From the NCBI GenBank assembly GCA_016806715.1, contig CP060531.1:124001-188000 (forward strand): a stretch of DNA of 64,000 nucleotides, given 5' to 3'. The notes under the pieces were generated by a model, which worked only from the letters and a program-made list of their open reading frames with translations, ran no database searches and was not told the DNA's origin. Below are positions 1 through 32,194 of this stretch, piece after piece; the stretch's first letter is position 1; each line of letters starts with the position of its first letter. The position numbers were made by a program, and so were the translations under genes. This DNA is from Thermoplasmatales archaeon (lineage in GTDB: Archaea > Thermoplasmatota > Thermoplasmata > Thermoplasmatales > Thermoplasmataceae).

Positions 1-1
1 T

Positions 2-463
2 CTGAGTTACAATCACTATTTAAGCATTGAAGATTTTACTTCACTCACTTTGGCATTTATAAGCTATGGTATGAATGTAAAGATCCCTTATGACTATGTG
101 AGACAGCTTCAAGTCTCATCTACATCAACTCCCTTTTCAACTTTCAATACGACCTCAGAGAAATTATACATGACCAGCAATCAAGGAGAAACTGAGGCAG
201 TTAACGGGAATGTCAATTTTACTGCCCCTGATATTATAACTCTTCAGGAATCTGGCTACTACCCAAATATGACGTCTAAATTGGAACTGAGTTACTATAT
301 TCAAGCTAATGAGGCGATGGTATATAACAACGGACACTACGTCTACAATGCGACCCAGTTAAGATACGGGACTGAAGCAAGAAACTGGATGTCACTTGCA
401 GCGGGTGCCTTTATCAGCGTTGGAATGGCAGAGTTTATTGCACTTATTAGAAAGAAAGATTAG
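2..463 (+). CDS. C-terminal part of a surface/secreted membrane-anchored protein (5' end outside window)
   Basis: The reading frame is open from base 2, so this is the tail of a gene that starts before the window; a TTG at 50 is probably internal. The visible ~150 residues are rich in Ser, Thr, Asn and Tyr and have several N-glycosylation sequons (NTT, NFT, NMT, NAT). They end in one hydrophobic helix (SLAAGAFISVGMAEFIALI) and a short RKKD tail. This is the usual design of an archaeal exported protein held by a C-terminal membrane anchor, with the bulk outside the cell. No enzymatic domain is recognisable. It is the leftmost gene of the accessory island. Confidence 0.55.
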   Translation: MSYNHYLSIEDFTSLTLAFISYGMNVKIPYDYVRQLQVSSTSTPFSTFNTTSEKLYMTSNQGETEAVNGNVNFTAPDIITLQESGYYPNMTSKLELSYYIQANEAMVYNNGHYVYNATQLRYGTEARNWMSLAAGAFISVGMAEFIALIRKKD

Positions 464-875
464 CGCCAAGGAAGTAAAAATTCCACGAATAATCTAAGAT
501 CAACCTATTCTTTTTATTTAGAAACGGTTTGAGGATAGGGTTCTAGTACGTTACAGGAAGTGACGGTCCAGATGTAACAATCATGCAATCATCTGATGGT
601 TTTTACACGTTTTAGATGATAAAGATATCTCTGAACAACTGGAAAGCGTGGATGAGTCACCACAAGGTAAAGATATTAAAAGTGGGAAGCTTAGATCAGC
701 ACCCAACAGAAAGGTGAAATCCTAACAATTGGGGAAGAAGACAGGAAAGAGATAAGGTAGCCAATAGAGAGATGGCCTTAAGCGATATGGAATCAAATAG
801 GAACTACCAAGTATACTGATCATAAGACGTAAAACTTATAGACTTCCAAGAAGTGTATATTTGGAGAAGAAAAAT
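464..875. other. 412-base stretch without an intact gene; traces of a decayed reading frame
   Basis: No complete gene is visible. Two short plus-strand frames look protein-like: about 548-614 (ending DGFYTF then TAG) and about 594-725 (VLDDKDISEQLESVDES, ending RKVKS then TAA). They overlap and would join through a single frameshift near 610-616, which suggests a decayed gene directly upstream of the Ubl cassette. The family is not recognised. The last bases carry the GGAG Shine-Dalgarno of the next gene (863-866). Confidence 0.3.
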
Positions 876-1115
876 ATGGTCGAGACTGTGATCGTGTTTA
901 TTGGAAAAAAGAAGATAGAATCAGGGAAGGAAACAACAGTTGGTGCCTTATTGGCACTGGCAGGTTTCTCCCCGAGTGAATATATCCTTGAGCTGAGGGA
1001 GGGTGAAGGTGGCCCTGTCATTAACAAATATACCGAGCCAACAGAAAAGTTGGAATTGAAAGAAGGGGAACATTTCACCACCAAATACATCGGGCCGATA
1101 CAGCCATCTGATTGA
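876..1115 (+). CDS. Ubiquitin-like protein, multiubiquitin-type single domain
   Basis: A 79-residue protein that reads as one beta-grasp domain of the prokaryotic multiubiquitin type (Pfam family Multiubiquitin): IVFIGKKKIESGKETTVGAL, then LALAGFSPSEYIL, then a final strand EGEHFTTKYIG. The start is placed at ATG 876 because GGAG lies 9 bases upstream; a TTG at 861 would add five residues that sit on that Shine-Dalgarno. There is one domain rather than the tandem copies common in this family. It does not end in GlyGly; a single Gly is followed by PIQPSD, so the JAB domain of the downstream fusion could trim the tail (inference). The E2-like gene follows after one base. Confidence 0.7.
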   Translation: MVETVIVFIGKKKIESGKETTVGALLALAGFSPSEYILELREGEGGPVINKYTEPTEKLELKEGEHFTTKYIGPIQPSD

Positions 1116-1116
1116 C

Positions 1117-1482
1117 ATGTCTGATGATAACTCAGCCGAATCCTTCGAAAGTGAGGTAAAACTACGAGAATACAGTTATACAGCTACCACGGTATCTGGT
1201 AACGTCGCTTTTATTATTGAAAATTATCCAATTTTGTACGGCAAGAACTCAGGAAAGCAAATTTCAATAGGTATTGTACTGCCGAAAGATTATCCTTCTG
1301 CGGCCCCTGCTGGTATTCACATAAAGTGGCGACAGGACTTACAAAACAAACCTACAAACATTGTGAAAAGTGAGATGGGAAGTGGGTGGGAACGAATGAG
1401 CCGCGTAGTTCAGAACTGGGTCCCGGGGCGGAGAAGGGCAGAATTGTTTTTCGCTCAGGTGGATAAATGGCTGGAAGCATAG
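1117..1482 (+). CDS. E2-like (UBC-fold) protein, prokaryotic E2 family, no cysteine
   Basis: 121 residues. The central part (IGIVLPKDYPSAAPAGIHIKW) matches the E2/UBC core, where a beta-strand is followed by the P-x-x-YP segment that packs the active-site flap; VQNWVPGRRRAELFFAQVDKWL would be the C-terminal helices. Position between a Ubl and an E1 supports an E2-like role. The protein contains no cysteine at all, so it cannot form the E2-Ubl thioester; it may be a non-catalytic scaffold, or transfer may go directly from the E1. It starts one base after the Ubl stop and its TAG abuts the next ATG, so the three genes must be translated from one mRNA. Confidence 0.65.
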   Translation: MSDDNSAESFESEVKLREYSYTATTVSGNVAFIIENYPILYGKNSGKQISIGIVLPKDYPSAAPAGIHIKWRQDLQNKPTNIVKSEMGSGWERMSRVVQNWVPGRRRAELFFAQVDKWLEA

Positions 1483-2892
1483 ATGTTGGAATTCAGTATA
1501 GCAATTCCAGAAAGCTTGGAGAATCAGCTTCGTACCAAGCTTTTGGCTAATAAGGAAAATGAAGATGGCGTTTTTGCGTTTTGGAGACCAGCAAAGGGCA
1601 AGAGAAGAAAAACTGGTTTAATTGTGGATTGGCTGGCGCCACATGTAAATGAAGTACTGCACCATGGCAATATCACACTGACTACTGAATATTATACAAG
1701 AGCTCGGGAGAAAGCTCTTCAACTTAAAGCTGGCCTTGTGCTAGTACATACGCATCCATTAGGATCTGGATGGCAACTTCCATCCTCTTTCGATAAGAAA
1801 GTTGAGGGAGTTAAAATAGGCCCCGAAATAGAAGATCTCACAGGCCAGCCAATGATAGGAATGATCCTGTCAGGCGACGGAACCTGGAGCGCAAGATTTT
1901 ACTCAACGAATTTAAAAGGAAAGACCACCTTAAATGAATGTGTATCAGTAAGAATAGTGGGAAAATACCTAAAATTACATTTCAATCCATCTCTTAAGCC
2001 ACAACCAGATCAACTCCCACAACAAGTCAGAACGCGTAATGTGTGGGGAGATGCACGGCAAGCTGACATTAGCCGTCTCCGCATTGGAGTGATTGGGTAT
2101 GGCAGTGTTGGGTCTTTGGTATGCGAACAGCTTGTGCGTGTTGGAGTTACAGAGCTCATTGTCATGGACTTTGACAGAGTTGAAATTCACAATTTAGACC
2201 GGTTGTTGGGATCAAATTTAAGAGATGCTAAGAAACATAATAAAAAATTATCAATTGCTAAACGTAATTTACCAAAAGCAGCAACTTCAGATCATTTTCG
2301 CTTAATACTTGAAGAAGGGAGTATAGTCGAACCGGAATCATTTTACTCGGCTTTAGATGCTGATGTTTTATTTTCCTGCGTTGATAGGAATTGGCCTCGT
2401 CAAGTTTTAAATCACATTGCATACACATGTCTAATCCCGGTAGTTGATGGGGGAGTCTCTATCTTTGTACGTAAAAATGGTGAGGTTCAGCACGCAGTTG
2501 TAAGGGCACAAACTGTTGGCCCGGAGAGAGCGTGTCTTAGTTGCCTTGGAATGTATGATGCAGGAAAGATACAACTTGAACGAGATGGGATATTAATAGA
2601 TCCAGAATATATTAGAAATCTGGGTACTGATGAGCGATACAAGCTTGAACAAGAGTCTCAGAACATTATGCCATTTTCAGTACTCTTGTCAGGTATTGAA
2701 ATGGGTCAATTCATAGAATTGGTGACTGGAATTGCAAGCACCGGAGATATTGGTCGACAACAATATGATTACTTAACCGGAGAAATGAGTCCAGATCGGG
2801 AAACCTGTCATCCGGACTGTGAATACGTTCGAAGAATAGGCGATGGGTCAATAAATCTCCCAGTATTGGGCAAAGATCCAGCAATCGATTAA
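1483..2892 (+). CDS. JAB metallopeptidase-E1 (ThiF) fusion protein
   Basis: 469 residues with two domains. Residues ~1-140 form a JAB/JAMM isopeptidase with H89-x-H91 and S101-x-x-D104, expected to bind zinc and trim or remove the Ubl. Residues ~195-450 form an E1/ThiF adenylation domain with nucleotide motif GYGSVG (205-210), the acidic strand MDFDRVEIHNLDR (229-240) and structural zinc pairs C351-x-x-C354 and C442-x3-C446. C299 and C316 are candidates for a thioester cysteine, but none is obvious. It would activate the C terminus of the upstream Ubl with ATP. JAB-E1 fusions next to E2 and multiubiquitin genes are a known bacterial arrangement; an archaeal one with a single Ubl domain is unusual. 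Confidence 0.85.
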   Translation: MLEFSIAIPESLENQLRTKLLANKENEDGVFAFWRPAKGKRRKTGLIVDWLAPHVNEVLHHGNITLTTEYYTRAREKALQLKAGLVLVHTHPLGSGWQLPSSFDKKVEGVKIGPEIEDLTGQPMIGMILSGDGTWSARFYSTNLKGKTTLNECVSVRIVGKYLKLHFNPSLKPQPDQLPQQVRTRNVWGDARQADISRLRIGVIGYGSVGSLVCEQLVRVGVTELIVMDFDRVEIHNLDRLLGSNLRDAKKHNKKLSIAKRNLPKAATSDHFRLILEEGSIVEPESFYSALDADVLFSCVDRNWPRQVLNHIAYTCLIPVVDGGVSIFVRKNGEVQHAVVRAQTVGPERACLSCLGMYDAGKIQLERDGILIDPEYIRNLGTDERYKLEQESQNIMPFSVLLSGIEMGQFIELVTGIASTGDIGRQQYDYLTGEMSPDRETCHPDCEYVRRIGDGSINLPVLGKDPAID

Positions 2893-3245
2893 TTGCTGTG
2901 TTAGTATGATTTTCCAAGAACCTTAGCAAACGAAAAATCAAATTATGCTTGCGTAATGGCAATTTAGCCTCTTTAAACTTGACTTTCGGGATTAATACAT
3001 TGTTCATCTAACTCTCATTTGGGTTCCCAAGGATAGGACACCAAGGAAAGCCTGTTATTAAGATCAGTGAGAATTATCTAATGTCCGACGAGACCAGTCT
3101 TTGAATAATTAATGTGTAAGACTTGATAAATAAAGCTTCACTGCTGTCTATCTTTTTATTTACCCATACAAAAATCCGAAGAGCTCGATTTATATTCATA
3201 TATTGCACTCAGTTACCCTGTGAATAGATCAAATGAAACCTTCCA

Positions 3246-3452
3246 TTAGGGTCCAGTCCTAGTATCCCCCTTAACCTCCATTTTCAATTCCACCAATTTT
3301 TTTATCCAGAACAGGTTCTGGATACCTGAGGGACGCCAATTTGCCTCCTGCCAATGAATATCTCCGGCTGAAGCCGTGATGGGCATCACCACCTTCTTTC
3401 TGTTCTGATCTACCAGCTTAAGAGCGTAAGGAAAAGTATTAGGCAGTCCACT
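3246..3452 (-). pseudogene. Unidentified gene fragment without a clear start
   Basis: The minus strand is open from 3452 to a TAA at 3246 and reads as natural protein sequence (DQNRKKVVMPITASAGDIHW, then RPSGIQNLFWIKKLVE), about 68 residues. The frame begins right after an in-frame TGA. The only starts are internal GTG/ATG codons at VVM, which would give about 50 residues. It looks like the remnant of a larger gene. The family is not recognised. Confidence 0.3.
3305..3389. repeat. Cluster of three short inverted repeats
   Basis: Three hairpins lie within 85 bases: TCCAGAACAGGTTCTGGA (3305-3322, 8-bp arms), CGGC-TGAA-GCCG (3365-3376) and GTGATG-GG-CATCAC (3376-3389 region). They overlap the decayed minus-strand frame. 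They may be remains of a mobile-element end or a convergent terminator; nothing else marks them as an RNA gene. Confidence 0.3.
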
Positions 3453-3499
3453 TCACTTATAGATTTTGTGTACTTACTTCCTCCCTATTATGAAAAAAA

Positions 3500-3994
3500 T
3501 CATTTAAGATACTTTTTATCGTCTTCCTCGTCCTCATCGAGGCCCAATTGCCTAAATGATTCTGGATCAATAGCCTCTCTTGATAATTCTATCCCATTCA
3601 CTATAAATTTGTCTAGCCTTGCATATTTGTCAAACTCAATGAACCTGATTGCCCTCCGTAATGCCAAGAGTTCTTCCTTTTGATTTATCATCTCCGTTTT
3701 CAGTCGTAACAATTGTTCCTCATCCCTTTCACGGTTGTGTCCTTCTCCACGTAAGTGTAAAGCAATATCAACGGCAGTACGTACAGCTGTTACTCCGACT
3801 GAAACCAAAAGGGAAAGGTCGAAAGAATTTCTCCCTTTCTTTACACTGAAAGTTTTGACGTCCGCTATTTTTCCGTGGTCAAAACTCCTCAAAACCGCAC
3901 TTATTATCCAGGTTCCTGCCATGATATTGGAGCCAATCAACTCCAGCTTTAACTCATTAGTGTCGTAATTTCTAACCGGCAAATCTTCACCCAA
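3500..3994 (-). CDS. Helical protein of unknown function, TIR-operon partner
   Basis: 164 residues from a TTG start, supported by a GGAGTGA Shine-Dalgarno about 7 bases upstream. The N-terminal ~70 residues look beta-rich (NIMAGTWIISAVLRSF). One moderately hydrophobic stretch (LSLLVSVGVTAVRTAVDIAL) follows, then a charged coiled-coil-like segment (RERDEEQLLRLKTEMINQK) and an acidic tail (LDEDEEDDKKYLK). No family is recognised. It begins 44 bases after the TIR gene stop and is the last gene of that minus-strand operon, so it may be an effector partner or membrane-targeting subunit (inference). Confidence 0.55.
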   Translation of the reverse strand: MGEDLPVRNYDTNELKLELIGSNIMAGTWIISAVLRSFDHGKIADVKTFSVKKGRNSFDLSLLVSVGVTAVRTAVDIALHLRGEGHNRERDEEQLLRLKTEMINQKEELLALRRAIRFIEFDKYARLDKFIVNGIELSREAIDPESFRQLGLDEDEEDDKKYLK

Positions 3995-4038
3995 TTAAAC
4001 TCACTCCCTTACGCTTCTTGCATTAAATTTGTTAAAAT

Positions 4039-4785
4039 TCACTCATCCACCTCAAAATCCGGCGTACTAGTTCGGTCTTTGCTCATTGCGGGCTGGATGT
4101 TAGATTTTCTCTCTATTATGATTTTTTCCCTAAATTTGCCATTATAATATTCCATTACGCCGCCGCACGAAGGGCAAAGGACAGTGTCTAAGTTATTAAG
4201 TTTGAAGGGGGCGGCAGGAAGCATCACGAATTCTGTCCCACAGTTCTTATAAGGGCAATGGTAAACATATTTCTGGCTTTTAGCATGTGGGTCTTTAAAA
4301 TTTATTTTAGGACTATTCTCGTAAAATTCTATAATACCTTCTACACTTGATTTCAAGGTTGAAGGACTAACATTTGAGTTGACAGGAAGAAATACATCGA
4401 AATCCAATACAGGAAAATTAAACATGGGATCGGTTGTTACGAGCCATATGTCTCTTTTGAATGCTGCCGCAATGCCGATTTCAAAGGACATCCAATTAGT
4501 AGTATGCAGCCAATATTTACGATCATTATTTTTAATGATATTAATTAATCCAGGCCCTACTAGTACAAAAACAACCTTGGAAGTGCAGATATCATTGATT
4601 ATGTCCTTTTCTGGAGGAGAACCCATTTTTTCAAACTCCTTGCGAAATATCCTCACGCCAGTGCCTATCCTTGGAGCGACTTCATCAAAAACATCTGCTA
4701 ATTTTTTATCCTCTTTAGAATGGCAAAGAAAAATCCCATAGTGCTTCGTGTCTTCAGAGCAGCCACAATTTTTGCTCATAATCAT
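4039..4785 (-). CDS. TIR-domain protein with C-terminal zinc ribbon
   Basis: 248 residues. Residues ~14-120 form a TIR-like domain: YGIFLCHSKEDKKLADVF (strand A and helix A), a FRKEF segment, KVVFVLVGPG (strand D) and NWMSFEIGIAAAF, where W98-x3-E102 has the spacing of the W/E catalytic motif in NAD-cleaving TIR domains such as SARM1. Residues 177-207 carry C177-x4-C182 and C204-x2-C207, a zinc ribbon that could sense a ligand or nucleic acid. Its ATG overlaps the upstream regulator's TGA by four bases, so the two are coupled. Prokaryotic TIR proteins often deplete NAD during phage defence; that role is inferred here. Confidence 0.7.
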   Translation of the reverse strand: MIMSKNCGCSEDTKHYGIFLCHSKEDKKLADVFDEVAPRIGTGVRIFRKEFEKMGSPPEKDIINDICTSKVVFVLVGPGLINIIKNNDRKYWLHTTNWMSFEIGIAAAFKRDIWLVTTDPMFNFPVLDFDVFLPVNSNVSPSTLKSSVEGIIEFYENSPKINFKDPHAKSQKYVYHCPYKNCGTEFVMLPAAPFKLNNLDTVLCPSCGGVMEYYNGKFREKIIIERKSNIQPAMSKDRTSTPDFEVDE

Positions 4786-5345
4786 TTCCCTCCTCTCACC
4801 CTCGCGAACATGTCCTGGACAGGTGCAAGTGTCAGGGCATACCCGACATGATAGCAGTCAAAGCTTTCATCCTCCTCGCACCATAGCCTGAGGTGACCCT
4901 GGCCGTTTTCCCGTATGTATATGTTGAATATGCGTTCCCTTCCGGTCCCTTCATGGTTGGTCTCCATGATGGTTACATGATCTTCGTAGACATTCACATG
5001 GAACAGGGCATGAAGATTCTTCCACTTCTCTCGCCATTCCTCCGGGACCTGTACTTCAATTCTGCCTTCATTCTCAAAAACAGTTGCGCCTCTGGCTGCT
5101 TCCTCTGCACGCTTCAGCTGTTCGGCTACGGCATGGCCCTTGGGAGTTAGGGTAATTTCATAAGTTCGACGACCGTACTCAGATAATTTTTTTGTAATAT
5201 ATCCATCCCCTTCGAGTGCATCGAGGAGTTTGTCTAGAGTCTGATTACTTGTTACAACATCAAATAATTCGTGTTTCATGAACGAGTCCTTTTCAGTAAG
5301 CCTGCGAAGGATTGTATTTGCATACTTAAGGTCAAGAGAATTCAT
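4782..5345 (-). CDS. Winged-helix transcriptional regulator, first gene of TIR operon
   Basis: 187 residues. The N-terminal ~80 residues form a winged helix of PadR/MarR type (ILRRLTEKDSFMKHELFDVV, then LDALEGDGYITKKL and the wing RRTYEITLTPKGHAVAE). The C-terminal ~100 residues (VPEEWREKWKNLHALFHVNV and onward) are an unrecognised beta-rich sensor domain. It starts at an ATG with no Shine-Dalgarno, consistent with a leaderless mRNA, and overlaps the TIR gene by ATGA. The divergent upstream spacer contains a palindrome (5389-5404) that would suit autoregulation. Confidence 0.6.
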   Translation of the reverse strand: MNSLDLKYANTILRRLTEKDSFMKHELFDVVTSNQTLDKLLDALEGDGYITKKLSEYGRRTYEITLTPKGHAVAEQLKRAEEAARGATVFENEGRIEVQVPEEWREKWKNLHALFHVNVYEDHVTIMETNHEGTGRERIFNIYIRENGQGHLRLWCEEDESFDCYHVGYALTLAPVQDMFARVRGGK

Positions 5346-5388
5346 TTGCTAAGTGACTAATTACTGCTAACATAAGAACTTCCTTATA

Positions 5389-5404
5389 TTAGTTATTTAA
5401 CTAA
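5389..5404. promoter_or_regulatory. Palindromic operator candidate in the divergent promoter
   Basis: TTAGTT-ATTT-AACTAA is an exact inverted repeat with 6-bp arms, located between the divergent winged-helix gene (start 5345) and the VapB-like gene (start 5452). TATA-like sequences overlap it on both strands (TATAAG-type on minus, CTTTTAAAC near 5411-5420 on plus). Binding by the adjacent regulator is inferred. Confidence 0.35.
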
Positions 5405-5451
5405 TGATTAACCTTTTAAACATCTCTAACTTATTGTTCATCAGTTAACAA

Positions 5452-5673
5452 ATGGTGAATGACATGGTAACAACGAATGGAAAAGTCGTAAAACTAAGCA
5501 TTGAGAACTACGAGAGATTAAAAGATGCAAAATTCGAACTTCGCATGCCATCTTTTGATGGTGTGGTAGCTAGGCTGCTTGATGAAGACAACACAGAGGT
5601 ATACCCTTGTCTCCGACCGGAACCCGGAAAAAGTGGTGATTTTTGGACAGAGAGTATTATTTCGAAAACATGA
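5452..5673 (+). CDS. VapB-like antitoxin, no toxin gene beside it
   Basis: 73 residues. GKVVKLSIENYERLKDAKFE followed by MPSFDGVVARLLDE matches the archaeal VapB antitoxin pattern (K-x-I-x-L-x2-x-x-YERL-K ... SF-x2-V-x-RLL). The C-terminal ~25 residues are atypical and may be replaced sequence. ATG 5452 has no Shine-Dalgarno; a TATA-like CTTTTAAAC lies ~32 bases upstream, so the mRNA may be leaderless. ATG 5464 is an alternative start. No VapC PIN-domain gene follows; a tRNA gene begins ~50 bases downstream, so the pair is broken or the antitoxin acts alone. Confidence 0.5.
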   Translation: MVNDMVTTNGKVVKLSIENYERLKDAKFELRMPSFDGVVARLLDEDNTEVYPCLRPEPGKSGDFWTESIISKT

Positions 5674-5720
5674 CAATGGCCGGAAGGAGGAAGTAAGCAT
5701 GGGTTCTGCTCAGACAGTAA

Positions 5721-5794
5721 TGGGGCTGGCCGGGTTTGAACCGACGGCCACCTGGTTATGAGCCAGGCGCTCTACCTGGCTGAGCTACAGCCCC
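5721..5794 (-). tRNA. tRNA with CAU anticodon (elongator Met, or Ile2)
   Basis: 74-nt cloverleaf on the minus strand: acceptor GGGGCTG pairs with CAGCCCC, discriminator A, anticodon arm CCTGG-CTCATAA-CCAGG, T arm GTCGG-TTCAAAC-CCGGC. No intron and no encoded CCA. The anticodon stem lacks the three G:C pairs of an initiator tRNA, so this is elongator tRNA-Met or an Ile2 tRNA with a modified C34; sequence alone does not decide. Its 3' end faces the accessory island at 1-5720. Confidence 0.9.
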
Positions 5795-6272
5795 AACGCC
5801 GCTGATAGGCGTTCTGATAAATAGTTCGATTGCACATAAAGATATCGCCCCTCTTGATTAAATGGTCGCCTTGGGACATCATCTTGATTCTATCTATGAG
5901 GGCATCATGAAGTTCATAGAGGTTTCTGGATGGAACCGGTAAGTCTTGATAAAACTGAAGATGGAATGCCCAGATATCTGGAAATATCCAAATGACCCTA
6001 ATATTGCAGTAGCTCAAGTTCCAATGGCATCCGGACATCTACGCTTATGCTTCTAATTCATCGGTGTATTTTTTCCTTCCGGGAGAGCTGAGACCTCGTG
6101 AGATATCACGCTCAAGGGCATCCGGGGTCGGGTTATATTTTCCTGACTATTGGGATTCTTACATTGTTTGCGGATGATCCAGAATTTGACGGTTGTAACG
6201 CAGCATTACAACCTGAACTGCAACTCAAAATTCACCGGAAAGTATATAATGTATATATCAGTATCTTAATCT
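5795..6272. other. 478-base gap, no recognisable gene
   Basis: Only short, unconvincing frames occur (5772-6038 minus overlaps the tRNA; 6098-6289 plus overlaps the next gene). No repeat or RNA gene was recognised. The last ~40 bases are AT-rich and include ATAATGTATATATCAG at 6247-6262, which could hold the promoter of the secreted-protein gene. Confidence 0.4.
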
Positions 6273-7052
6273 ATGTTCTTCAAAAATAGGAAAAATACGC
6301 TAGTAACAGCTGTGTCGCTTATCATAGCGGTTGCTTTTGTGATGCTATGGTTTTCTCCGGTTGTCAGCAACACAGGTCAAACAGCAGTCACAGGCAATGA
6401 AAGTGTTATACTGGCAAATGGGGCATTTTCGAGTAACTCCTTTAACGCACATAATGTCAGCCAAACATACTTACAGCTTGGCGGAACAAATATTACCATA
6501 TACCGGGAAAATATCAGCAGAGGCACTACAAGTGGTTTTGCCACAGTCACCAAGATCAACGGCACAATATCGTCGTGGACGATTTACCAGAATAACCTAT
6601 TCAGTGGCATAGTGAGTCTGGAAGCCATGTACTATGGCCATGTATCCAGTTACGTAACCCATACTAACGAATCTAACTCGGCTGGCGTTGAAGTGACCAC
6701 AAACATCACAAACCACACTTTAGCGAGTCAGATAGCGACTGCTACATCTAGTGATGCAAAGTATAGCATCGGTTTGTTTGGCTGGGCTGCCAGTTTTTCA
6801 GAGAGTGAGCTTGGAATCTTAAATGCCTATTTCTTTGATGGTGCTACCCTGACAACGTTCATAGCACTTATAATTGCACTGGCAGGAGTATCAGGAGGAG
6901 TGGGAGCTGCAATAGCTGGCGCCATAATTGCTTTGGGAGCGGTAGTCATATATACATTATATACAGATTGTGGTAATGATGGCGGATATATAGGAACGAC
7001 CTGGCTCGGTTCGTTTGTGGTAGGGTGTAATCCAGTTCCTTGGGGCTATTGA
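6273..7052 (+). CDS. Secreted bacteriocin-like precursor (archaeocin candidate)
   Basis: 259 residues. An N-terminal signal or anchor (TLVTAVSLIIAVAFVMLWF) is followed by a ~150-residue extracellular, Asn/Ser/Thr-rich domain with many sequons. It ends in a ~65-residue hydrophobic, glycine-rich module (GVSGGVGAAIAGAIIALGA) with two cysteines (DCGNDGG and VGCNPVPWGY at the C terminus). A long exported precursor ending in a Gly/Ala-rich hydrophobic cysteine-containing segment resembles bacteriocin and halocin precursors. No processing site is certain. A two-helix membrane ORF follows at once and could be its immunity partner. It could also be a simple surface protein with a C-terminal hairpin anchor. 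Confidence 0.45.
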   Translation: MFFKNRKNTLVTAVSLIIAVAFVMLWFSPVVSNTGQTAVTGNESVILANGAFSSNSFNAHNVSQTYLQLGGTNITIYRENISRGTTSGFATVTKINGTISSWTIYQNNLFSGIVSLEAMYYGHVSSYVTHTNESNSAGVEVTTNITNHTLASQIATATSSDAKYSIGLFGWAASFSESELGILNAYFFDGATLTTFIALIIALAGVSGGVGAAIAGAIIALGAVVIYTLYTDCGNDGGYIGTTWLGSFVVGCNPVPWGY

Positions 7053-7062
7053 GGTGATTTAG

Positions 7063-7287
7063 ATCTCCTCACAGTTCCTAAAATTCCGGAAATATTCAAA
7101 GAAGACAAAGATACTATGGTATGTGGGTATATCATATGCTACAGTTATCCTTTTTTTTGCTATTTATAATACTGTCTATGGACCATTTTCGAATACGCAT
7201 TTGACTGATATGATAATTTTGGTCGTGATACTCGTTACATACGGGGTAATTTTCAATCTCCTTTTATACTGGAAGATTTTAAAATAG
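7063..7287 (+). CDS. Small two-helix membrane protein, possible immunity protein
   Basis: A frame open from 7063 to TAG 7285-7287 encodes two clear membrane helices (YATVILFFAIYNTVYG and MIILVVILVTYGVIFNLLLY) with basic ends (KFRKYSKKTK before helix 1, YWKILK at the end). A strong Shine-Dalgarno, GAGGTGAT, sits at 7051-7058, but the first codon in frame after it is ATC at 7063. The nearest ordinary start is GTG 7123 (54 residues). Either a rare start codon is used or the 5' end is altered. Position directly behind the bacteriocin-like gene suggests an immunity or anchoring partner. Confidence 0.4.
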   Translation: MSSQFLKFRKYSKKTKILWYVGISYATVILFFAIYNTVYGPFSNTHLTDMIILVVILVTYGVIFNLLLYWKILK

Positions 7288-7321
7288 TTCAGGATTTGTC
7301 CTGCATAATTAGGGATGAAAC

Positions 7322-7645
7322 TCGGGACTTCATGGGATCGCACTCCTAGGTATGTGGGCACTGCCAAAGAGTATGGCGGAAAGATACCTGGAGAAATGGA
7401 TCTCATGGACCATGTGATCAGGCATTAGGGAGATAGTGAGATTCGGAAATACAGTTAAGAGGAATTTCAACGCCATAGTCAGTGCAATAAAGCTTGATCT
7501 AAGCAACTCTGCTGCAGAGGGCATAAACAACAAGATCAAGACAGCCTTGAAGCGTTCATGCGGACTCAAGTCAGATGAATATAATGATACGATGATATTC
7601 CTGGTTGCAGGAAAGCTCGAACTTCCAATACTCCCGAGTAAATAA
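7322..7645 (+). pseudogene. ISL3-type transposase, C-terminal remnant with internal stop
   Basis: The frame reads WALPKSMAERYLEKWISWTM, then TGA at 7415-7417, then SGIREIVRFGNTVKRN and AAEGINNKIKTALKRSCGLK, up to TAA at 7645. The EGINNKIK-x-KR-x2-G signature and preceding kW-x2-W region are those of ISL3-family DDE transposases. Everything before ~7322 is missing, so this is a dead fragment. It lies between two tRNA genes together with the bacteriocin-like locus, which supports past mobility of the segment. Confidence 0.65.
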
Positions 7646-7759
7646 AATGGTTGGATTACTTATATACCTCTTCGATGCTGAAGAGAACCAAAAAATTAGA
7701 TGGAAGGAACGTCTCTTCCGCAGGACGCGCATTTGCACCGCCGCGAGCGATGAACAAAA

Positions 7760-7832
7760 CGCCGTTGATCGGATTTGAACCGATGACCGCTCGGTTAACA
7801 GCCGAGTGCTCTACCTACTGAGCTACAACGGC
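7760..7832 (-). tRNA. tRNA-Asn (GTT)
   Basis: 73-nt cloverleaf on the minus strand: acceptor GCCGTTG/CAACGGC, discriminator G, anticodon arm CTCGG-CTGTTAA-CCGAG giving GTT, T loop TTCAAAT. No intron and no encoded CCA. Its 3' end points towards the transposase remnant. Confidence 0.95.
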
Positions 7833-8131
7833 ACTTGGTTATGGTTAAGAGATTGCTTTCTTTTAATCTTTTCGCAGTGTGCTCATCGGCTAATAAGGTT
7901 GCCAGACCTGAATTGTACGTAGCAATCAATTCAATTCCTGTAATGATCAGTTTCCATGCCTCGATGCCAAACACTAAACTCCTGATACGCGTAAATTAAA
8001 TGCAGGCCTTGGAAAATAGAGGAAATTGATCACACTCACCTTATCCGTTCTTGCCATCACAGGCTGCGTGGCTATTTCATGGGAACAGAATTACTCAACG
8101 GCAGCAGGATAGTAGCGTTAGAGACAAAGCA

Positions 8132-18557: not shown

Positions 18558-19418
18558 TTAAGCATCCACTATTCCTTCGGAGGGCTCCCACAGTTCCCCG
18601 TATCTTGTAATCTGTCCGTATTGAACAGGATCCATGGATGAGTGCCCTATTACTGCAAGTAGATATATATTTTTCTCCAAGCAGATGCTTCTTATCTGCT
18701 CAAGTCCGCGGGCAATCTCGTAAAATGGATGATACAGCATCAGGAAGTCAAAAACATCAAAATAAACTATCTGAGGGCTGATCTCTAATATTTTCTTTAT
18801 TACAGAATCCACGATAAAAGTAAGGTTAACCGGCCTGCTTTTCTGAGGTCCCGGTGAATCTGTAACCCAAATAAAATTTTCCGGGCGGATAACATCCGGA
18901 GCATCAAGGACAAGATTATATCTGGATGCTACAAGTACTTTTTTTGCGTCCACGTACTGAGAAAGCAGCAGATCTATAAAGTGACCGATATTCTTGGGAT
19001 TGGTATAATAACTCTGTCCCGGGTAGAGGTTGTTCCTTGCCATGTAGACTGAAAAATCGTTGATTGCATTCAGGCGTCTCAGGAATTTGTTGGTCAGGGC
19101 ACCTCTGAGTCTTGATCTTGTCAGTGTAATGTTCTTGTCATCATATTTTACCATGGCACAGGTTACAGCAATTCTTTCATCCACTACGATATCGTCACTG
19201 TGAATTATTATTAGAATTGCCACCCTGTTTGGAGCCCCTGCATAAGCCTCGAACGATTTGTCTATTTTGTCGTCCACGAAATAAACAACTGCTGTGGTTC
19301 CTTCAGGAACGGAATTCGCAGATAATTTCGTGATAACAGTATAGGGCAATCCCAGCGGTTTGAATAATTGATCAACGACAGATTCGTGCTTCTTTTCTCT
19401 GTCGTAAACACATATCAT
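18558..19418 (-). CDS. DUF835-family protein with N-terminal receiver-like domain
   Basis: 286 residues. Residues ~130-280 follow the DUF835 pattern: YPGQSYYTNPKNIGHFIDLL, KKVLVASRYN, NFIWVTDSPGP, IVYFDVFDFLMLYHPFYEIA and NIYLLAVIGHSSM. The N-terminal ~110 residues (MICVYDREKKHESVVDQLF, then TAVVYFVDDKIDKS) look alpha/beta. DUF835 resembles a KaiC-like fold without a P-loop and occurs in archaeal signalling proteins. It is translated just upstream of the GvpD-like ATPase, probably as a partner. AT-rich sequence at 19433-19450 may be its promoter. Confidence 0.6.
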   Translation of the reverse strand: MICVYDREKKHESVVDQLFKPLGLPYTVITKLSANSVPEGTTAVVYFVDDKIDKSFEAYAGAPNRVAILIIIHSDDIVVDERIAVTCAMVKYDDKNITLTRSRLRGALTNKFLRRLNAINDFSVYMARNNLYPGQSYYTNPKNIGHFIDLLLSQYVDAKKVLVASRYNLVLDAPDVIRPENFIWVTDSPGPQKSRPVNLTFIVDSVIKKILEISPQIVYFDVFDFLMLYHPFYEIARGLEQIRSICLEKNIYLLAVIGHSSMDPVQYGQITRYGELWEPSEGIVDA

Positions 19419-19574
19419 GCTGTTTTAGTACATTGAAAACCATATTTAAATCTTTGTCGACACTTAATATTATACCTATATGTACACAATCGGGTAATGA
19501 GGAATGAATATACACTTCCTGAAAAGCCCATATGTTTGAAAAAGGTTTAAAACTGTATATTGCCTTGTGTAAGC

Positions 19575-20495
19575 ATGGATTTCCTGGAACAGATAAGGAA
19601 CCTGAAAGAACAGTTCAGGACAGATTACAAATTCAGCCTTCCAGACAGGTATAGCAACATAGTCATATCAGGAATGGGGGGATCCGGAATAGCCGGAAAA
19701 ATCTTCCAGGAGCTTTACAGTGACAAACCGCTTTTCGTGAATGAAGATTATGAAATACCCGCTTGGGTTGGGTCCTCCACGCTGTTCATAGCAATCAGCT
19801 ATTCAGGAAACACTGAGGAAACATTATCCGCAGTTAAGAAGGCACAAGCTGCCGGGGCACACATCGTAAAGATCAGCTCAGGAGGGAAACTTGAGGAAAT
19901 TCCCGGGGTTCAGGTTACTGTACCCGGTGGAATCCAGCCGAGGTCAGCGCTTGGTTACCTACTTGCTACCCTGCTCAATTCATTTGGCATGCTATCAGCG
20001 GCGCGGAATGGAATATACGAACTCCTGGAAAGCATTGATGAAAGTAATGGTTTCCTTAAGGAGATGGCCAGAAATATTGCAGACAACAGACTGATACCGT
20101 TGATACTGACGCTCCCCGGTTTCAGGTCTACCGGAACCCGGTGGAAAACCCAGTTCAACGAAAATGCAAAGCTCCTGGCATTCTCGCTTAACTTCCCCGA
20201 ACTCGACCATAATGATATTATGGCTTTCGAAAGATCATATAACAGGGAGAAATTCTACCCAATAGTAATTGGCGATACCCGGAATAAGCAGATCGCAAAA
20301 AGAGTAAAAGTTACCCCCCTTCTCACAGGATACAGGTTCAATTCACTTGAACCCAGGGGTGAAAGCCTACTGGAAAGAATCCTATACACCATACACTGCG
20401 GGGATTACCTGTCATATTATGTTTCCGCATCATTGAATCTGGATCCGGAGGACGTTGATATCATAGAGAGGCTGAAATCGGAACTGGCAAAATAG
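19575..20495 (+). CDS. Bifunctional phosphoglucose/phosphomannose isomerase
   Basis: 306 residues from ATG 19575; an in-frame TTG at 19560 is rejected because a TATA-like TTTAAAAC at 19546-19553 sits ~25 bases before the ATG, typical of a leaderless mRNA. It interconverts glucose-6-P or mannose-6-P with fructose-6-P. Two SIS domains are visible: VISGMGGSGIAGKIFQELY, SYSGNTEETLSAVKKA (phosphate loop), IQPRSALGYLLATLL, and the catalytic NENAK and ELDHND motifs. The combined PGI/PMI is typical of Thermoplasmatales and Crenarchaeota. Convergent with Rqc2, 25 bases apart. Confidence 0.88.
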   Translation: MDFLEQIRNLKEQFRTDYKFSLPDRYSNIVISGMGGSGIAGKIFQELYSDKPLFVNEDYEIPAWVGSSTLFIAISYSGNTEETLSAVKKAQAAGAHIVKISSGGKLEEIPGVQVTVPGGIQPRSALGYLLATLLNSFGMLSAARNGIYELLESIDESNGFLKEMARNIADNRLIPLILTLPGFRSTGTRWKTQFNENAKLLAFSLNFPELDHNDIMAFERSYNREKFYPIVIGDTRNKQIAKRVKVTPLLTGYRFNSLEPRGESLLERILYTIHCGDYLSYYVSASLNLDPEDVDIIERLKSELAK

Positions 20496-22611: not shown

Positions 22612-24222
22612 TTAGATTTTGATCGATTTAATCCATGCTTTCACTTCTTTGGTCGGCAGATCCTCATGCGTTTCAAGTATCTTCACCAGGGCATCAAGAA
22701 CCGGCTTCCTCTCCCTGTCTTTTCTTACTATTGGTTCACATGGGTTCGGCCTTATTAGTTTCCTTGCATTATCCATCTCCTCGGGGGTGATGGATACAAA
22801 CTCATTCAGGAAATCTATCCTTGAGAGGACTTTCTCAATGTAATTCTTATTCTCAATGTTGGAGAGTATCGCTGTCAGGGCACCATACATGCCCATCTCC
22901 TTTGCAGTCTGTGATCTTCCGGTGCGTCTGCGGATGTGCATCCTGCTCCACCTGTGACCGATCTCCTCTATTCCGTTGTGCCTTTTGACGTTGATTGTTT
23001 TGCCATCAACAGTCACAGGGGATAGGAGCTCATCCCTGTGATCCTCTATCCGATTCTTTATTGTTCTTGATATTCTTTCCAGTTCACCGCCTGCGAACTC
23101 CCCCTCCTTTGTTATTGATCTCAGCGAAGCGTTGAGATCATTCCCTATTGCAGCTATATCGGCAGGTTCCCTGGCAGATTCGCCGGAATTCATCTCCCTT
23201 GAAACCCTCAGCGACTTCCTTATGGACTCGAACCATGACCATACTCGTGACAGTATGCGGTATCTTTCCATCACAGCAGGATCCATGCTGATCTCCTTTA
23301 CAGCAGAGTGGAATGCCATGACAGGTTTCACGACCTTCATGTGGGAGGCATTCCACCCTATGATGGATTTCATCATGTTCCTGATCTCGATGCATCTCTC
23401 GAGCACCTGTAGATATGGTAAAACGAATGGAAACTTGCTCGGTATGGTTCTTGGATAGAGGATGTATTCAGCGGCTACTGCGATCCATATCTTCTCTGCA
23501 TACAGTATTCCATCATTCCCGTTTTTTTCCGGTAATGTCATGCGCGAGATCAGTGCAAGCGCCTCTGTCGATACCATGGAGTCTCTCAGTTCCTGATAGG
23601 AGGAGAATACATCCTTCCCCAGCGCCTTTGTGAAATGGTAATGACAGATAAGCTGCAGTATGCCAGGAAAAACAGCAGTTGCAGATCCCTTTATTGCAAT
23701 CCCCATGTCCCTGAGGATTGCAACCGGAATTCCGAAAACATCCTTTATGCCCTCAAGGAAGGGTGTGACGTACTCACTGCTCTCCGATGGCATTATCACC
23801 GCATCCATCGTTATATTAGTGAGACCGTCCTTGGCCATGAACACGATCTCGCCGCCGGATTCGCCTGTACCGTCAAGGTGAAGTATGTATACTATCAGGC
23901 CAAGATCCTTCATGTGCCTCCTGTGGATGCAGTAAAACCTGAGCAGGAATTCCCTGGAGAGAAAGGATATCTCTCCCGTGGATATCCTTATGCCACGGGA
24001 TTCCAGGAGTATCTGTATCTCCGATCGCTGGTAGTCCATGATCCATCTCAGGATACCGACAGCCATGGTTATGCCGGGATCGAAACCGGAATCTTTTAGC
24101 ACGGAGTGAATGGCATTCCTGTTCGTCTTCCTGTGATCGGGGCACCTTCTCGCATGAACCTTCAGATCGACGGATCCGGAAAGGGTCATGATAGTTCTCC
24201 TGTAACTGTACAGTTCATTCAT
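22612..24222 (-). CDS. Transposase, main frame (DDE domain), reached by -1 frameshift
   Basis: 536 residues if started at ATG 24222, but the frame is open upstream and reads ...LPPEEKIIRSAEKCEICGKR before this ATG, so translation probably enters from the 24584 frame at the A8 run. The zinc pair CEIC and the following CPDHR are split by the ATG. Catalytic candidates are D in HLDGTGESGG, D in ILRDMGIAIKG and the late RHNGIEEIGHRWSR region with Glu. ICHYHFTKALGKDVFSSY is the C/H-x2-H-F segment seen in many DDE transposases. The TAA lies inside the left terminal repeat. Confidence 0.7.
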   Translation of the reverse strand: MNELYSYRRTIMTLSGSVDLKVHARRCPDHRKTNRNAIHSVLKDSGFDPGITMAVGILRWIMDYQRSEIQILLESRGIRISTGEISFLSREFLLRFYCIHRRHMKDLGLIVYILHLDGTGESGGEIVFMAKDGLTNITMDAVIMPSESSEYVTPFLEGIKDVFGIPVAILRDMGIAIKGSATAVFPGILQLICHYHFTKALGKDVFSSYQELRDSMVSTEALALISRMTLPEKNGNDGILYAEKIWIAVAAEYILYPRTIPSKFPFVLPYLQVLERCIEIRNMMKSIIGWNASHMKVVKPVMAFHSAVKEISMDPAVMERYRILSRVWSWFESIRKSLRVSREMNSGESAREPADIAAIGNDLNASLRSITKEGEFAGGELERISRTIKNRIEDHRDELLSPVTVDGKTINVKRHNGIEEIGHRWSRMHIRRRTGRSQTAKEMGMYGALTAILSNIENKNYIEKVLSRIDFLNEFVSITPEEMDNARKLIRPNPCEPIVRKDRERKPVLDALVKILETHEDLPTKEVKAWIKSIKI

Positions 24223-24767: not shown

Positions 24768-25181
24768 ATGGAGATAAGAAACAGTGAAAAAGAATATCAT
24801 CGCATACCACATTTAGTATATAGTTGCCAGTATCATGTGATATTCTGCCCTAAATACAGGAGACGTGTGCTGAAAGATGGAATAGATGCACGCTTGAAGG
24901 AGTTGATCATGGAAAAACAGGATGAATATGAGTACAGGGTGCTTGAGATAGAGATCATGCCGGATCATGTGCATCTTCTCATGGATGTAAACCCAAAACT
25001 CGGCGTGTATTATGTTGTCAACCGGATCAAGGGCTACAGTTCTTCTGTCCTCAGGAATGAGTTCCCCTCGTTAAAACGGAAGCTCCCTACGCTGTGGACG
25101 CACTCAAAGTTCATATCCTCTGTGGGTGCTGTAACCCTTGAGGTTGTCAAGAAGTACATAGAGGATCAGAAGGGCGTATGA
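24768..25181 (+). CDS. tnpA: IS200-type Y1 transposase
   Basis: 137 residues. The HUH motif is H67-V-H69 in IMPDHVHLLMDV and the nucleophilic tyrosine is Y130 in VVKKYIEDQKG. HLVYSCQYHVIFCPKYRRRV is the family N terminus. It excises and inserts single-stranded transposon DNA at a short target. It appears intact, with full family length. TATATACGG near 24751-24759 may be part of the promoter. It overlaps tnpB by ATGA. Confidence 0.92.
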   Translation: MEIRNSEKEYHRIPHLVYSCQYHVIFCPKYRRRVLKDGIDARLKELIMEKQDEYEYRVLEIEIMPDHVHLLMDVNPKLGVYYVVNRIKGYSSSVLRNEFPSLKRKLPTLWTHSKFISSVGAVTLEVVKKYIEDQKGV

Positions 25182-26194
25182 TACTCACCTATAAGATCAG
25201 GCACAACAGTGACTTTCTGGAAGAATTAAAAAAGGCTGAGCGAATTGCAGTGTTTGCCATAAAAACTAAAACCATTTCATCTAAAGACGTCAAGCAATTT
25301 GGACTTAAATCAGCTATTTCAAACCAGATACTCAGGAAATATTCCAGAAGCCAGAGAGCAAAGGATGTTCATAATGTAAAATTAACCATACCTGCCCAGG
25401 GGATACATTTTAACCATGAGTACAGGACCATAACCATACCTTCTTTGAAACTCACCTTAAGCTACTATTTCAGGAATGATTTTGAGAAAATAAACCAGAT
25501 TGAACTGGATAATAAATTTGCATACATATCTGTGACCGTACCTGAAAACGCATTGATTGAACCGAAGGGATATATCGGAGTGGACAGAAACACAACAGGC
25601 CACATTGCTGTTACAGGCAATCCGGAAACCGGAAAGGTCATGAAGCTCGGGAAGAAGGCGGAACACACCCACAGGAAATACAAGAATATCAGGAAAAATC
25701 TCCAGAAAAAGGGGAAATACAGGAAGGTGAAAGAAACAAAGGATCGTGAGAGGAAAATCGAGAGGGACATAAACCACAAAGTATCGAAGAAGATAGTGCA
25801 GGAAGCGAAGAATAATGGGATGGGAATCAAGCTCGAATATCTAAAAGGAATAAGGAATGCAAAGTCGAGCAGAAATTTCAGGTACTCCCTGAATAGCTGG
25901 TCATTCCATCGTCTTGAACAGATGATAGAATACAAGGCCAGACTACTTGGAGTGCCTGTGGAACATGTTGATCCGCACAACACTTCAAAGGAGTGTTCAA
26001 GATGCGGACTCGTAGGCCACCGTTCAGGAAAGAGTTTTAAGTGCCCTGATTGCGGGCACGTTGATCATGCCGATGCCAATGCTTCGTTCAACATAGCATT
26101 GCGTCCGGTATTTGAGGAAGGCATGGATCGATTGCATGCAGACAGGGATGCATGCAAGGGGAGCACTGATACCCACAGAGAGGCAACGTTATGA
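25178..26194 (+). CDS. tnpB: TnpB RNA-guided nuclease of IS605 type
   Basis: 338 residues, a compact TnpB. RuvC residues are D136 (GYIGVDRNTTG), E220 (KLEYLKG) and D299 (HADANASFNIA); the zinc finger is C273-x2-C276 ... C289-x2-C292. TnpB proteins cut DNA guided by an omega RNA made from the transposon right end, keeping the element in the genome. All key residues are present, so it may be active. Its guide would read the sequence just after 26240, i.e. the 5' end of the hydrolase-like gene. Confidence 0.9.
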   Translation: MILTYKIRHNSDFLEELKKAERIAVFAIKTKTISSKDVKQFGLKSAISNQILRKYSRSQRAKDVHNVKLTIPAQGIHFNHEYRTITIPSLKLTLSYYFRNDFEKINQIELDNKFAYISVTVPENALIEPKGYIGVDRNTTGHIAVTGNPETGKVMKLGKKAEHTHRKYKNIRKNLQKKGKYRKVKETKDRERKIERDINHKVSKKIVQEAKNNGMGIKLEYLKGIRNAKSSRNFRYSLNSWSFHRLEQMIEYKARLLGVPVEHVDPHNTSKECSRCGLVGHRSGKSFKCPDCGHVDHADANASFNIALRPVFEEGMDRLHADRDACKGSTDTHREATL

Positions 26195-30987: not shown

Positions 30988-32194
30988 TAGCGTTCGCTTA
31001 ATTCCTATGCTATTGTGATATCATCCATTTTATACTTCCATCTAAAGATGACAGGAGACTTGTTAATTTCCTGGAAGTACTGATCAATCCTGTCCTTCAG
31101 TTCATCCATGCTTTTTACCCTGATCTCACGGAGCATGGTCCTGGCCAGTTTGCTGAAAAGTGTCTCCACTATGTTGAGCCATGATCCATGCTTTGGAGTG
31201 AAAACAAAGTCAAACCTGTTTGGCACTGTCAGCAGGAATTCCCTTGTTTTCGCCGATGTGTGCACCCTTAGATTATCCAGAATAACCCTTATCCTCTTAT
31301 CTTTGGGATACGACGAATCCAGTTTCTTCAGGAATGCTATGAAATCATTGCTGTTATGTGTTCTGCTCACAGTTTCCGTAACAATACCGGAATGCAGGTC
31401 TATGCCTGCCAGAAGGGACAGGGTGCCCAGCCTCTTATACTCATAATCCCTCGTGGCAGATGGATACTTTCCGGGAACGGGAGGGAGCTCCTCTGATGTC
31501 ATTGATATTGCCTGCATTCCCGGCTTCTCATCGAATGATACGGTTATTGTGTCCTTCAGCTCGGGTATTATGAAACCATTGTTGATCATGTCCACCTCCT
31601 TGTATACGTGCAGTACCGTGGCCATTTTTCCCTCAAAGTCAGGATCCCTCTTTTCCACATAGTACCTGATTTTGTGAGGTTTTATCTCCGCCTCATTGAG
31701 TATTTCGAAGACTGTGGATCTGCTTATATTCTTAAGGGATGACCTGTTCTTCCTTATGTGTCCGGTCAAGAGGGTATAGGGCCAGAGCTCGTCCGGGTAT
31801 CCATGTTCCGCTGGTTTTGTGCATGCAAGGTTAAGGATCCATGACTTATCATCATCTGTAATCGTTCTGGGCTTTCCAGGTCTTGGAAGATCGTTCAGTG
31901 CAGCCTCCATGCCAAATTCCCTCAGCTTTGACAGGCATTTCTTCACCGTATTCTTGTTCATGCCGTTCCTTGCTGCAATCCTGTCGTCGCTGTAATCCTC
32001 AAGATAATCGAGGATTATGGATGCCCTTGTTACTCTCCTCTTTTCCTCCTTCATCGATGACCTGATTCTCCTGAGCTTGTTCAGATCCTCTTCTGAAAGG
32101 TCTGGCTTTGGATATTTTCTCTTAAAAACCATTTATATCGCAAGTATAACGTAAATGAAGATATAAAGATAGACTAGTAATTAAGCGAACGATA
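30988..32194 (-). mobile_element. IS630-family insertion sequence
   Basis: Ends GCGTTCGCTTAATT (30990-31003) and AATTAAGCGAACGA (32179-32192) are inverted repeats with one mismatch. They are flanked by TA on both sides, the usual IS630/Tc1 target duplication. The flanks extend the symmetry: CTAGATTA on the left and TAATCTAG on the right, so the empty site would be the palindrome CTAGATTAATCTAG. The element is 1203 bp with one transposase gene and appears complete. Confidence 0.85.
31005..32132 (-). CDS. IS630-family transposase
   Basis: 375 residues. N-terminal helix-turn-helix (SIILDYLEDYSDDRIAARNG, NTVKKCLSKLREFG) and a Tc1/mariner-like DDE domain with D in VSFDEKPGMQA, D in RIRVILDNLRVH and E in HGSWLNIVETLFSKLAR. 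All three acidic residues are present and the frame is uninterrupted, so it may be active. Promoter and start lie just inside the right terminal repeat. Confidence 0.92.
   Translation of the reverse strand: MVFKRKYPKPDLSEEDLNKLRRIRSSMKEEKRRVTRASIILDYLEDYSDDRIAARNGMNKNTVKKCLSKLREFGMEAALNDLPRPGKPRTITDDDKSWILNLACTKPAEHGYPDELWPYTLLTGHIRKNRSSLKNISRSTVFEILNEAEIKPHKIRYYVEKRDPDFEGKMATVLHVYKEVDMINNGFIIPELKDTITVSFDEKPGMQAISMTSEELPPVPGKYPSATRDYEYKRLGTLSLLAGIDLHSGIVTETVSRTHNSNDFIAFLKKLDSSYPKDKRIRVILDNLRVHTSAKTREFLLTVPNRFDFVFTPKHGSWLNIVETLFSKLARTMLREIRVKSMDELKDRIDQYFQEINKSPVIFRWKYKMDDITIA

What the first reader, a model, noticed from the sequence alone, without database searches (positions are those of the whole stretch)
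876..2892. Compact ubiquitin-like conjugation cassette (Ubl, E2-like, JAB-E1) in an archaeon
Three genes with spacings of 1 and 0 bases encode a single multiubiquitin-type Ubl, an E2-fold protein and a JAB isopeptidase fused to an E1 adenylation domain. Related bacterial operons protect against phage (Bil and Bub type systems). The gene set here is minimal, sits in an accessory island of a probable Thermoplasmatales archaeon and has no RING-like gene. It could be a distinct archaeal antiviral conjugation system. The E1 and JAB motifs are seen; the defence role is inferred.
Basis: partly seen in the sequence, partly recalled or inferred. Interest (0 to 1): 0.85.

Follow-up and report, generated by a model that had tools for sequence, protein, structure and literature searches.

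The report
Bub-type ubiquitin-like cassette in an archaeon
An archaeon of the Thermoplasmata carries, in a genome island that its close relatives lack, a complete three-gene ubiquitin-like tagging kit of the recently described bacterial 'Bub' type, so this kit has crossed from bacteria into archaea; what it tags, and whether it fights viruses, is not known.

Summary
In detail: three abutting + strand genes encode a beta-grasp Ubl (876-1115), an E2-fold protein (1117-1482) and a JAB-E1 fusion (1483-2892). Each matches the bacterial Bub pathway best (PDB BubCD, BubB, multi-ubiquitin proteins). About 70 bacterial loci share the gene order, and the archaeal copy nests among them: a horizontally acquired Bub-type operon, not a distinct archaeal system. 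It lies in an island of ~17 kb beside tRNA-Met that sibling genomes lack. The E2 has no cysteine but a serine invariant in 75/75 relatives; the E1 has no conserved catalytic cysteine; JAMM and adenylation residues are intact. Ubls of this clade end in Ser/Ala (53/60), not Gly-Gly. Likely mechanism: JAB trims the Ubl, E1 adenylates it, E2 Ser95 passes it on as an oxyester, JAB removes it (residues shown, chemistry inferred). Bacterial relatives often sit beside ImmA/IrrE-type regulators (42/65 loci), suggesting stress or phage induction, but the archaeal copy has none, and Bub is reported as not shown to protect against phage. New member of a known kind.

The parts
876..1115 (+). Ubl (BubA-like), 79 aa, single beta-grasp domain, C-terminus ...YIGPIQPSD
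   Evidence: ORF; AF2 model pLDDT 89.5; Foldseek top hits 8u38, 9d5b and, lower, 9ea8_B: bacterial multi-ubiquitin/BubA; iterated profile links it to Ubls of ~70 loci
1107..1112 (+). Ubl C-terminal Ser78-Asp79: conserved terminal Ser plus one extra residue
   Evidence: 53 of 60 standalone Ubls of the clade end in S or A; need for trimming of the extra Asp is inferred
1117..1482 (+). E2-fold protein (BubB-like), 121 aa, no cysteine
   Evidence: Pfam Prok-E2_E 33.6 bits; AF2 model pLDDT 88.4; Foldseek top hit 9eae_C Citrobacter BubB; family profile vs PDB BubB E 3e-9
1399..1401 (+). codon of E2 Ser95, candidate Ubl-accepting residue
   Evidence: only residue invariant in 75/75 relatives; motif W-x-Y-W-S
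1483..2892 (+). JAB isopeptidase-E1 adenylating enzyme fusion (BubCD-like), 469 aa
   Evidence: ThiF 82.7 bits; best PDB match Citrobacter BubCD E 3.5e-19
1561..1794 (+). JAMM metal site: E27 (1561-1563), H89 (1747-1749), H91 (1753-1755), S101, D104 (1792-1794)
   Evidence: E27, H91, D104 in 79/79 and H89 in 78/79 aligned relatives; D104 aligns with D104 of Citrobacter BubCD, the residue changed to Ala in PDB entries
2020..2832 (+). E1 adenylation domain with D231, N237, R240, K255, D301 and Cys4 zinc-type site C351/C354/C442/C446; no conserved catalytic Cys
   Evidence: alignment of 79 relatives
1..5719 (.). right-hand part of the strain-specific island (left end near G000:112,233), ending at the 3' end of tRNA-Met (5720-5795, -)
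   Evidence: synteny with G044 and G046, which lack it and keep tRNA-Asn and tRNA-Met adjacent

Best explanation
A horizontally acquired, complete Bub-type (operon 'type 6e' of 2006) ubiquitin-like conjugation operon. The JAB domain matures the Ubl (here by removing one Asp after the conserved Ser) and removes it from targets; the E1 domain adenylates the Ubl C-terminus; because neither E1 nor E2 has a conserved catalytic Cys, the Ubl is carried on the invariant E2 Ser95 as an oxyester and then transferred to a target protein. It most likely acts as an inducible stress or antiviral response kept on a mobile island. Shown: three-gene architecture, folds, intact catalytic residues, Cys-less E2 with invariant Ser, non-Gly tail, bacterial relatives, island. 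Inferred: every chemical step, the targets, the biological role.
For: All three proteins match Bub components best among solved structures. Same order Ubl, E2, JAB-E1 in about 75 loci of many phyla. JAMM and adenylation residues invariant. Ser95 in 75/75 and no conserved Cys column in E2. Ubl ends in Ser/Ala at the stop codon in 53/60 standalone cases, and in fused forms the same motif marks the Ubl-E2 junction. Thermoplasmata pair (100/100) nested among bacteria (sister group 90/88); all archaeal copies as one clade rejected, p-AU 0.019. Island absent from siblings. In the related MAG the cassette lies between a resolvase and an integrase gene, the resolvase having 76-87% relatives in the same archaeal family. 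Bacterial relatives: Peptidase_M78 in 21 and HTH_3 in 24 of 93 upstream neighbours; HExxH-type ORF upstream in 42/65 loci, like CapH+CapP beside Bub in PMC13373217.
Against: No biochemical data for this clade. Equivalence of Ser95 with the E2 active-site Cys is not proven: a global profile alignment to human UBE2D2 leaves a gap there. The characterised Citrobacter Bub is distant (branch 3.56 in the E1 tree), has three Ubl domains, a fused E2, a BubA construct that ends in Gly, and a DUF6527 gene. No CapH/P, CapW or CapK/S-like regulator was seen beside the archaeal copy. Iyer et al. 2006 judged these E2s inactive. The deep joins of the tree involve long branches.
Confidence: 0.68

Rival explanations
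1. The E2-like protein is a non-catalytic scaffold (RWD-like): it docks the Ubl or target while the E1 passes the Ubl directly from the adenylate to a target.
For: No cysteine in the E2 and weak RWD similarity (E 0.013); Iyer et al. 2006 called this E2 family inactive; no E1 catalytic Cys either.
Against: Ser95 is the single invariant residue, unexpected for a mere scaffold; the E2 gene is present in nearly every locus.
Confidence: 0.22
2. Sulfur-carrier or cofactor locus (thiamin, MoCo, tRNA thiolation) rather than conjugation.
For: ThiF/MoeB-type adenylating domain; zinc-type Cys4 site retained.
Against: No metabolic neighbours; patchy distribution (3 full-length copies in 117 genomes of the order); a separate housekeeping ThiF gene at 1335394; Ubl tail is not GG; E2 and JAB accompany it throughout the clade.
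Confidence: 0.03
3. Decaying passenger on a mobile island with no present function.
For: The island carries an IS element that probably split a neighbouring gene; GC3 of the E1 gene is low (0.315).
Against: All three frames are intact with all catalytic residues, and a 50%-identical intact copy exists in another genus.
Confidence: 0.06

Closest known systems
Bub (bacterial ubiquitination-like) operon, Citrobacter (PDB 9ea4, 9ea8, 9eae, 9eav; plasmid operons L105, L106)
   Same: Ubl, Cys-less active-site region of E2 with W-S-R motif, JAB-E1 fusion with JAMM D104; same order
   Different: Citrobacter: three beta-grasp domains fused to E2, Ubl construct ending in Gly, no Cys4 site in E1, extra DUF6527 gene, ATP-binding protein plus winged-helix regulator genes upstream (CapK/CapS-like)
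Operon type 6e of Iyer, Burroughs and Aravind 2006 (PMC1779556)
   Same: one to three Ubls, E2/RWD-like domain without Cys between Ubl and JAB-E1, patchy distribution; a solo Ubl already seen in one species
   Different: reported from bacteria only; usually with a zinc-finger protein (Y), absent here
About 70 bacterial loci of this study (Acidobacteriota, Actinomycetota, Bacteroidota, Chloroflexota, Myxococcota and others)
   Same: three-gene order, Ser/Ala Ubl tail, invariant E2 Ser, Cys4-site E1
   Different: often with HTH + ImmA/IrrE genes upstream; the archaeal copy has none and its Ubl has one residue after the Ser
Haloarchaeal plasmid versions (L107-L109) and Thermoplasmata L102/L005
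   Same: Ubl, E2-like, JAB-E1
   Different: about 27% identity, separate branches; some haloarchaeal Ubls have long N-terminal extensions; L005 has a TIR gene overlapping the E1 gene
CBASS Cap2/Cap3, Bil, and the Caldiarchaeum E1/E2/RING cassette
   Same: same general E1/E2/JAB logic (own knowledge, PMC5654768 for Caldiarchaeum)
   Different: sequence is nearer to Bub than to Cap2 (PDB E 3.5e-19 against 3e-5 or weaker); no RING gene; no nucleotidyltransferase; E2 without Cys

Membership tests
Bub / operon type 6e | JAB fused N-terminal to an E1 adenylation domain | tested here: met
   PDB BubCD E 3.5e-19; JAMM and ATP-site residues intact
Bub / operon type 6e | E2/RWD-fold protein lacking the E2 cysteine | tested here: met
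   no Cys in 121 aa; model and profile match BubB
Bub / operon type 6e | Ubl of one to three beta-grasp domains (multiubiquitin type) | tested here: met
   one domain; structure matches multi-ubiquitin proteins; no Pfam Multi_ubiq hit for this copy itself
Bub / operon type 6e | genes adjacent in one operon | tested here: met
   gaps of 1 and 0 bases
Bub / operon type 6e | accompanying DUF6527 / zinc-finger protein (usual, not universal) | tested here: not met
   none beside the cassette; also only 2 of 92 downstream neighbours in the wider clade
Bub / operon type 6e | Ubl-protein conjugation activity | not testable with these tools
   needs biochemistry
Bil | separate E1 and JAB genes and a cysteine E2 (definition from own knowledge) | tested here: not met
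   JAB and E1 fused, E2 has no Cys
Anti-phage defence system | protects the host from virus | not testable with these tools
   Bub not shown to protect (PMC13373217)

The most novel reading that the evidence does not exclude
This clade is a thiol-free ubiquitin-like pathway: the Ubl matures to a C-terminal Ser/Ala instead of Gly and travels on an E2 serine ester with no cysteine step, and this chemistry has entered archaea at least twice as an inducible immune module.
Probability: 0.3. Interest if true: 0.75.

Novelty: new member of a known kind. Interest (0 to 1): 0.5.

Why it matters
A 2010 survey found no archaeal E2-like proteins (PMC2948915), and the main text of a 2026 survey of 7747 archaeal genomes does not contain the word ubiquitin, Bub or Bil (PMC12988326). 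A complete Bub-type cassette in an archaeon shows that full E1/E2/JAB ubiquitin-like operons move between domains of life, which bears on how eukaryotes came by theirs. The family-wide invariant E2 serine and non-Gly Ubl tail give sharp, testable predictions about ester-based conjugation.

Tried and rejected
Viral-contig scan: no relatives; phage records: only two weak E1-like hits. PADLOC: only E1-E2 and E2 models hit, at partial length, and none is named Bub. That the TIR gene at 4039-4785 belongs to the system was not supported: it is on the other strand in its own gene group, and TIR is not among the recurrent neighbour families of the clade, although L005/L102 has a TIR gene overlapping E1. 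Mapping E2 Ser95 onto the eukaryotic Cys by profile alignment was inconclusive. Duplicated tRNA ends (att sites) for the island were not found. The primary Bub papers (Ye et al. 2026; Gong et al. 2025) are not held; my recollection that Ye et al. report a non-thioester, oxyester mechanism could not be checked. Worry that the L025 contig is misbinned was lessened by close archaeal relatives of its resolvase.

Full report
What is there. Window 876-2892 (+) holds three abutting genes: a 79-aa Ubl, a 121-aa E2-fold protein and a 469-aa JAB-E1 fusion. Pfam names the second Prok-E2_E (33.6 bits over a cut-off of 25) and the third ThiF (82.7 bits). The first has no Pfam hit, but AlphaFold2 gives a confident beta-grasp fold (pLDDT 89.5) whose best PDB matches are bacterial multi-ubiquitin proteins, with Citrobacter BubA also listed. 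The E2 model (pLDDT 88.4) matches Citrobacter BubB best, and a family profile finds BubB in the PDB at E 3e-9. The JAB-E1 protein's best PDB match is Citrobacter BubCD, E 3.5e-19. Three separate best hits therefore name one system, Bub.

Relatives. A scan of the one-genome-per-species collection with a three-sequence JAB-E1 profile returned 80 loci. Iterated profiles found the order Ubl, E2, JAB-E1 in about 75 of them, from about a dozen bacterial phyla, with one or two Ubl domains and sometimes a Ubl-E2 fusion. So a minimal single-Ubl set is usual in this clade. Plasmids add 146 records, among them haloarchaeal ones at 26-29% identity (L107-L109). In the order of the window's genome, 3 of 117 genomes carry a full-length copy; the other hits there are short, E1-only matches in ORFs of ~250 aa, read as housekeeping ThiF/MoeB genes, and the window's genome has its own at 1335394.

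Origin. In an IQ-TREE tree the window protein pairs with Thermoplasmata L025 (100/100) and the pair lies among bacterial rows, next to Chloroflexota/Peptococcaceae proteins (90/88, not starred). Forcing all archaeal copies together is rejected at p-AU 0.019; the pair plus haloarchaea alone is not rejected (p 0.28). I read this as transfer from bacteria into archaea, with at least two separate archaeal lineages and the exact donor open. L025 is flanked by a resolvase and a tyrosine integrase, and its resolvase has 76-87% relatives in the same archaeal family.

Island. Genes G000:111258-112232 and 132132-133181 are ~20 kb apart in this genome but 5.8 and 4.4 kb apart in congeners G044 and G046, which lack the cassette. 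In those two, tRNA-Asn and tRNA-Met are adjacent; here they are 2 kb apart and the island (about 17 kb) runs up to the 3' end of tRNA-Met. No att repeat was found. The island also holds an ISL3 transposase and a kinase-HD protein similar to kinases of defence systems.

Mechanism. In 79 aligned JAB-E1 proteins E27, H91 and D104 (JAMM) and D231, N237, R240, K255, D301 (adenylation) are invariant; H89 in 78. The strongly conserved cysteines are C299 and a neighbouring column (Ala in the window) beside the ATP-site Asp, and the Cys4 zinc-type set, so no catalytic cysteine is evident. The E2 has no cysteine here and no conserved Cys column in 75 relatives; Ser95 is the one residue present in all 75. 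Of 60 standalone Ubls 53 end in Ser or Ala, typically ...PTPVS, and in Ubl-E2 fusions the same motif marks the junction, which suggests that Ser/Ala is the mature end and that JAB cuts after it. Citrobacter BubA by contrast was solved as a construct ending at a Gly. Proposed cycle: JAB trims, E1 adenylates, Ser95 accepts as an ester, transfer to target, JAB reverses. Residues are shown; the chemistry is inferred. Iyer et al. 2006 (PMC1779556) considered this E2 family inactive; the invariant Ser is my main reason to differ.

Role. Upstream of bacterial relatives, Peptidase_M78 (ImmA/IrrE) is the commonest non-HTH family (21 of 93 proteins; HTH_3 24), and a motif count finds such an ORF in 42 of 65 loci, 37 of them on the opposite strand (a motif count, so some may be unrelated). 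PMC13373217 reports that 219 of 544 Bub operons are associated with CapW or CapH+CapP, which respond to DNA damage, and says that Bub has not been shown to protect against phage. An induced stress or antiviral role is thus plausible for the family, but no such regulator was seen beside the archaeal copy, so the role here is inference.

Verdict. The finding is real and well described, but it is a member of the Bub family acquired from bacteria rather than a new archaeal system. Its value lies in the domain crossing and in the family-level hints of ester chemistry.

Noticed in passing
window 4039-4785 (-), with 4782-5345 (-) and 3500-3994 (-): TIR-like protein with a C-terminal zinc ribbon overlapping a winged-helix gene by 4 bases; weak ThsB similarity. 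A possible separate defence operon in the same island.
   Followed up: partly
L005:178-1158 (-) / L102:9277-10257: In another Thermoplasmata MAG a TIR-domain gene (Pfam TIR_2) overlaps the end of the JAB-E1 gene of a distant Bub-like cassette.
   Followed up: partly
L110:11905-14517 (-) (G000:115905-118517): 870-aa Ser/Thr kinase plus HD-domain protein, similar to Mads6 and PD-T4-6 kinases of PADLOC.
   Followed up: partly
L110:17952-18662, 18687-19889 and window 50-463: An ISL3 transposase gene lies between what look like the two halves of one membrane or surface protein gene.
   Followed up: no
window 5720-7833: tRNA-Met and tRNA-Asn, adjacent in congeners, are split here by a 2-kb insert carrying a 259-aa membrane-protein-like gene (6273-7052).
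   Followed up: partly
window 22612-24222 (-), 25178-26194 (+), 31005-32132 (-): Further transposase/TnpB-like ORFs, judged by eye from the translations.
   Followed up: no
Staphylococcus phage SA 1306 Kay, OR844994.1 56258-56863: E1-like stretch at 28% identity in a phage record without annotation.
   Followed up: no
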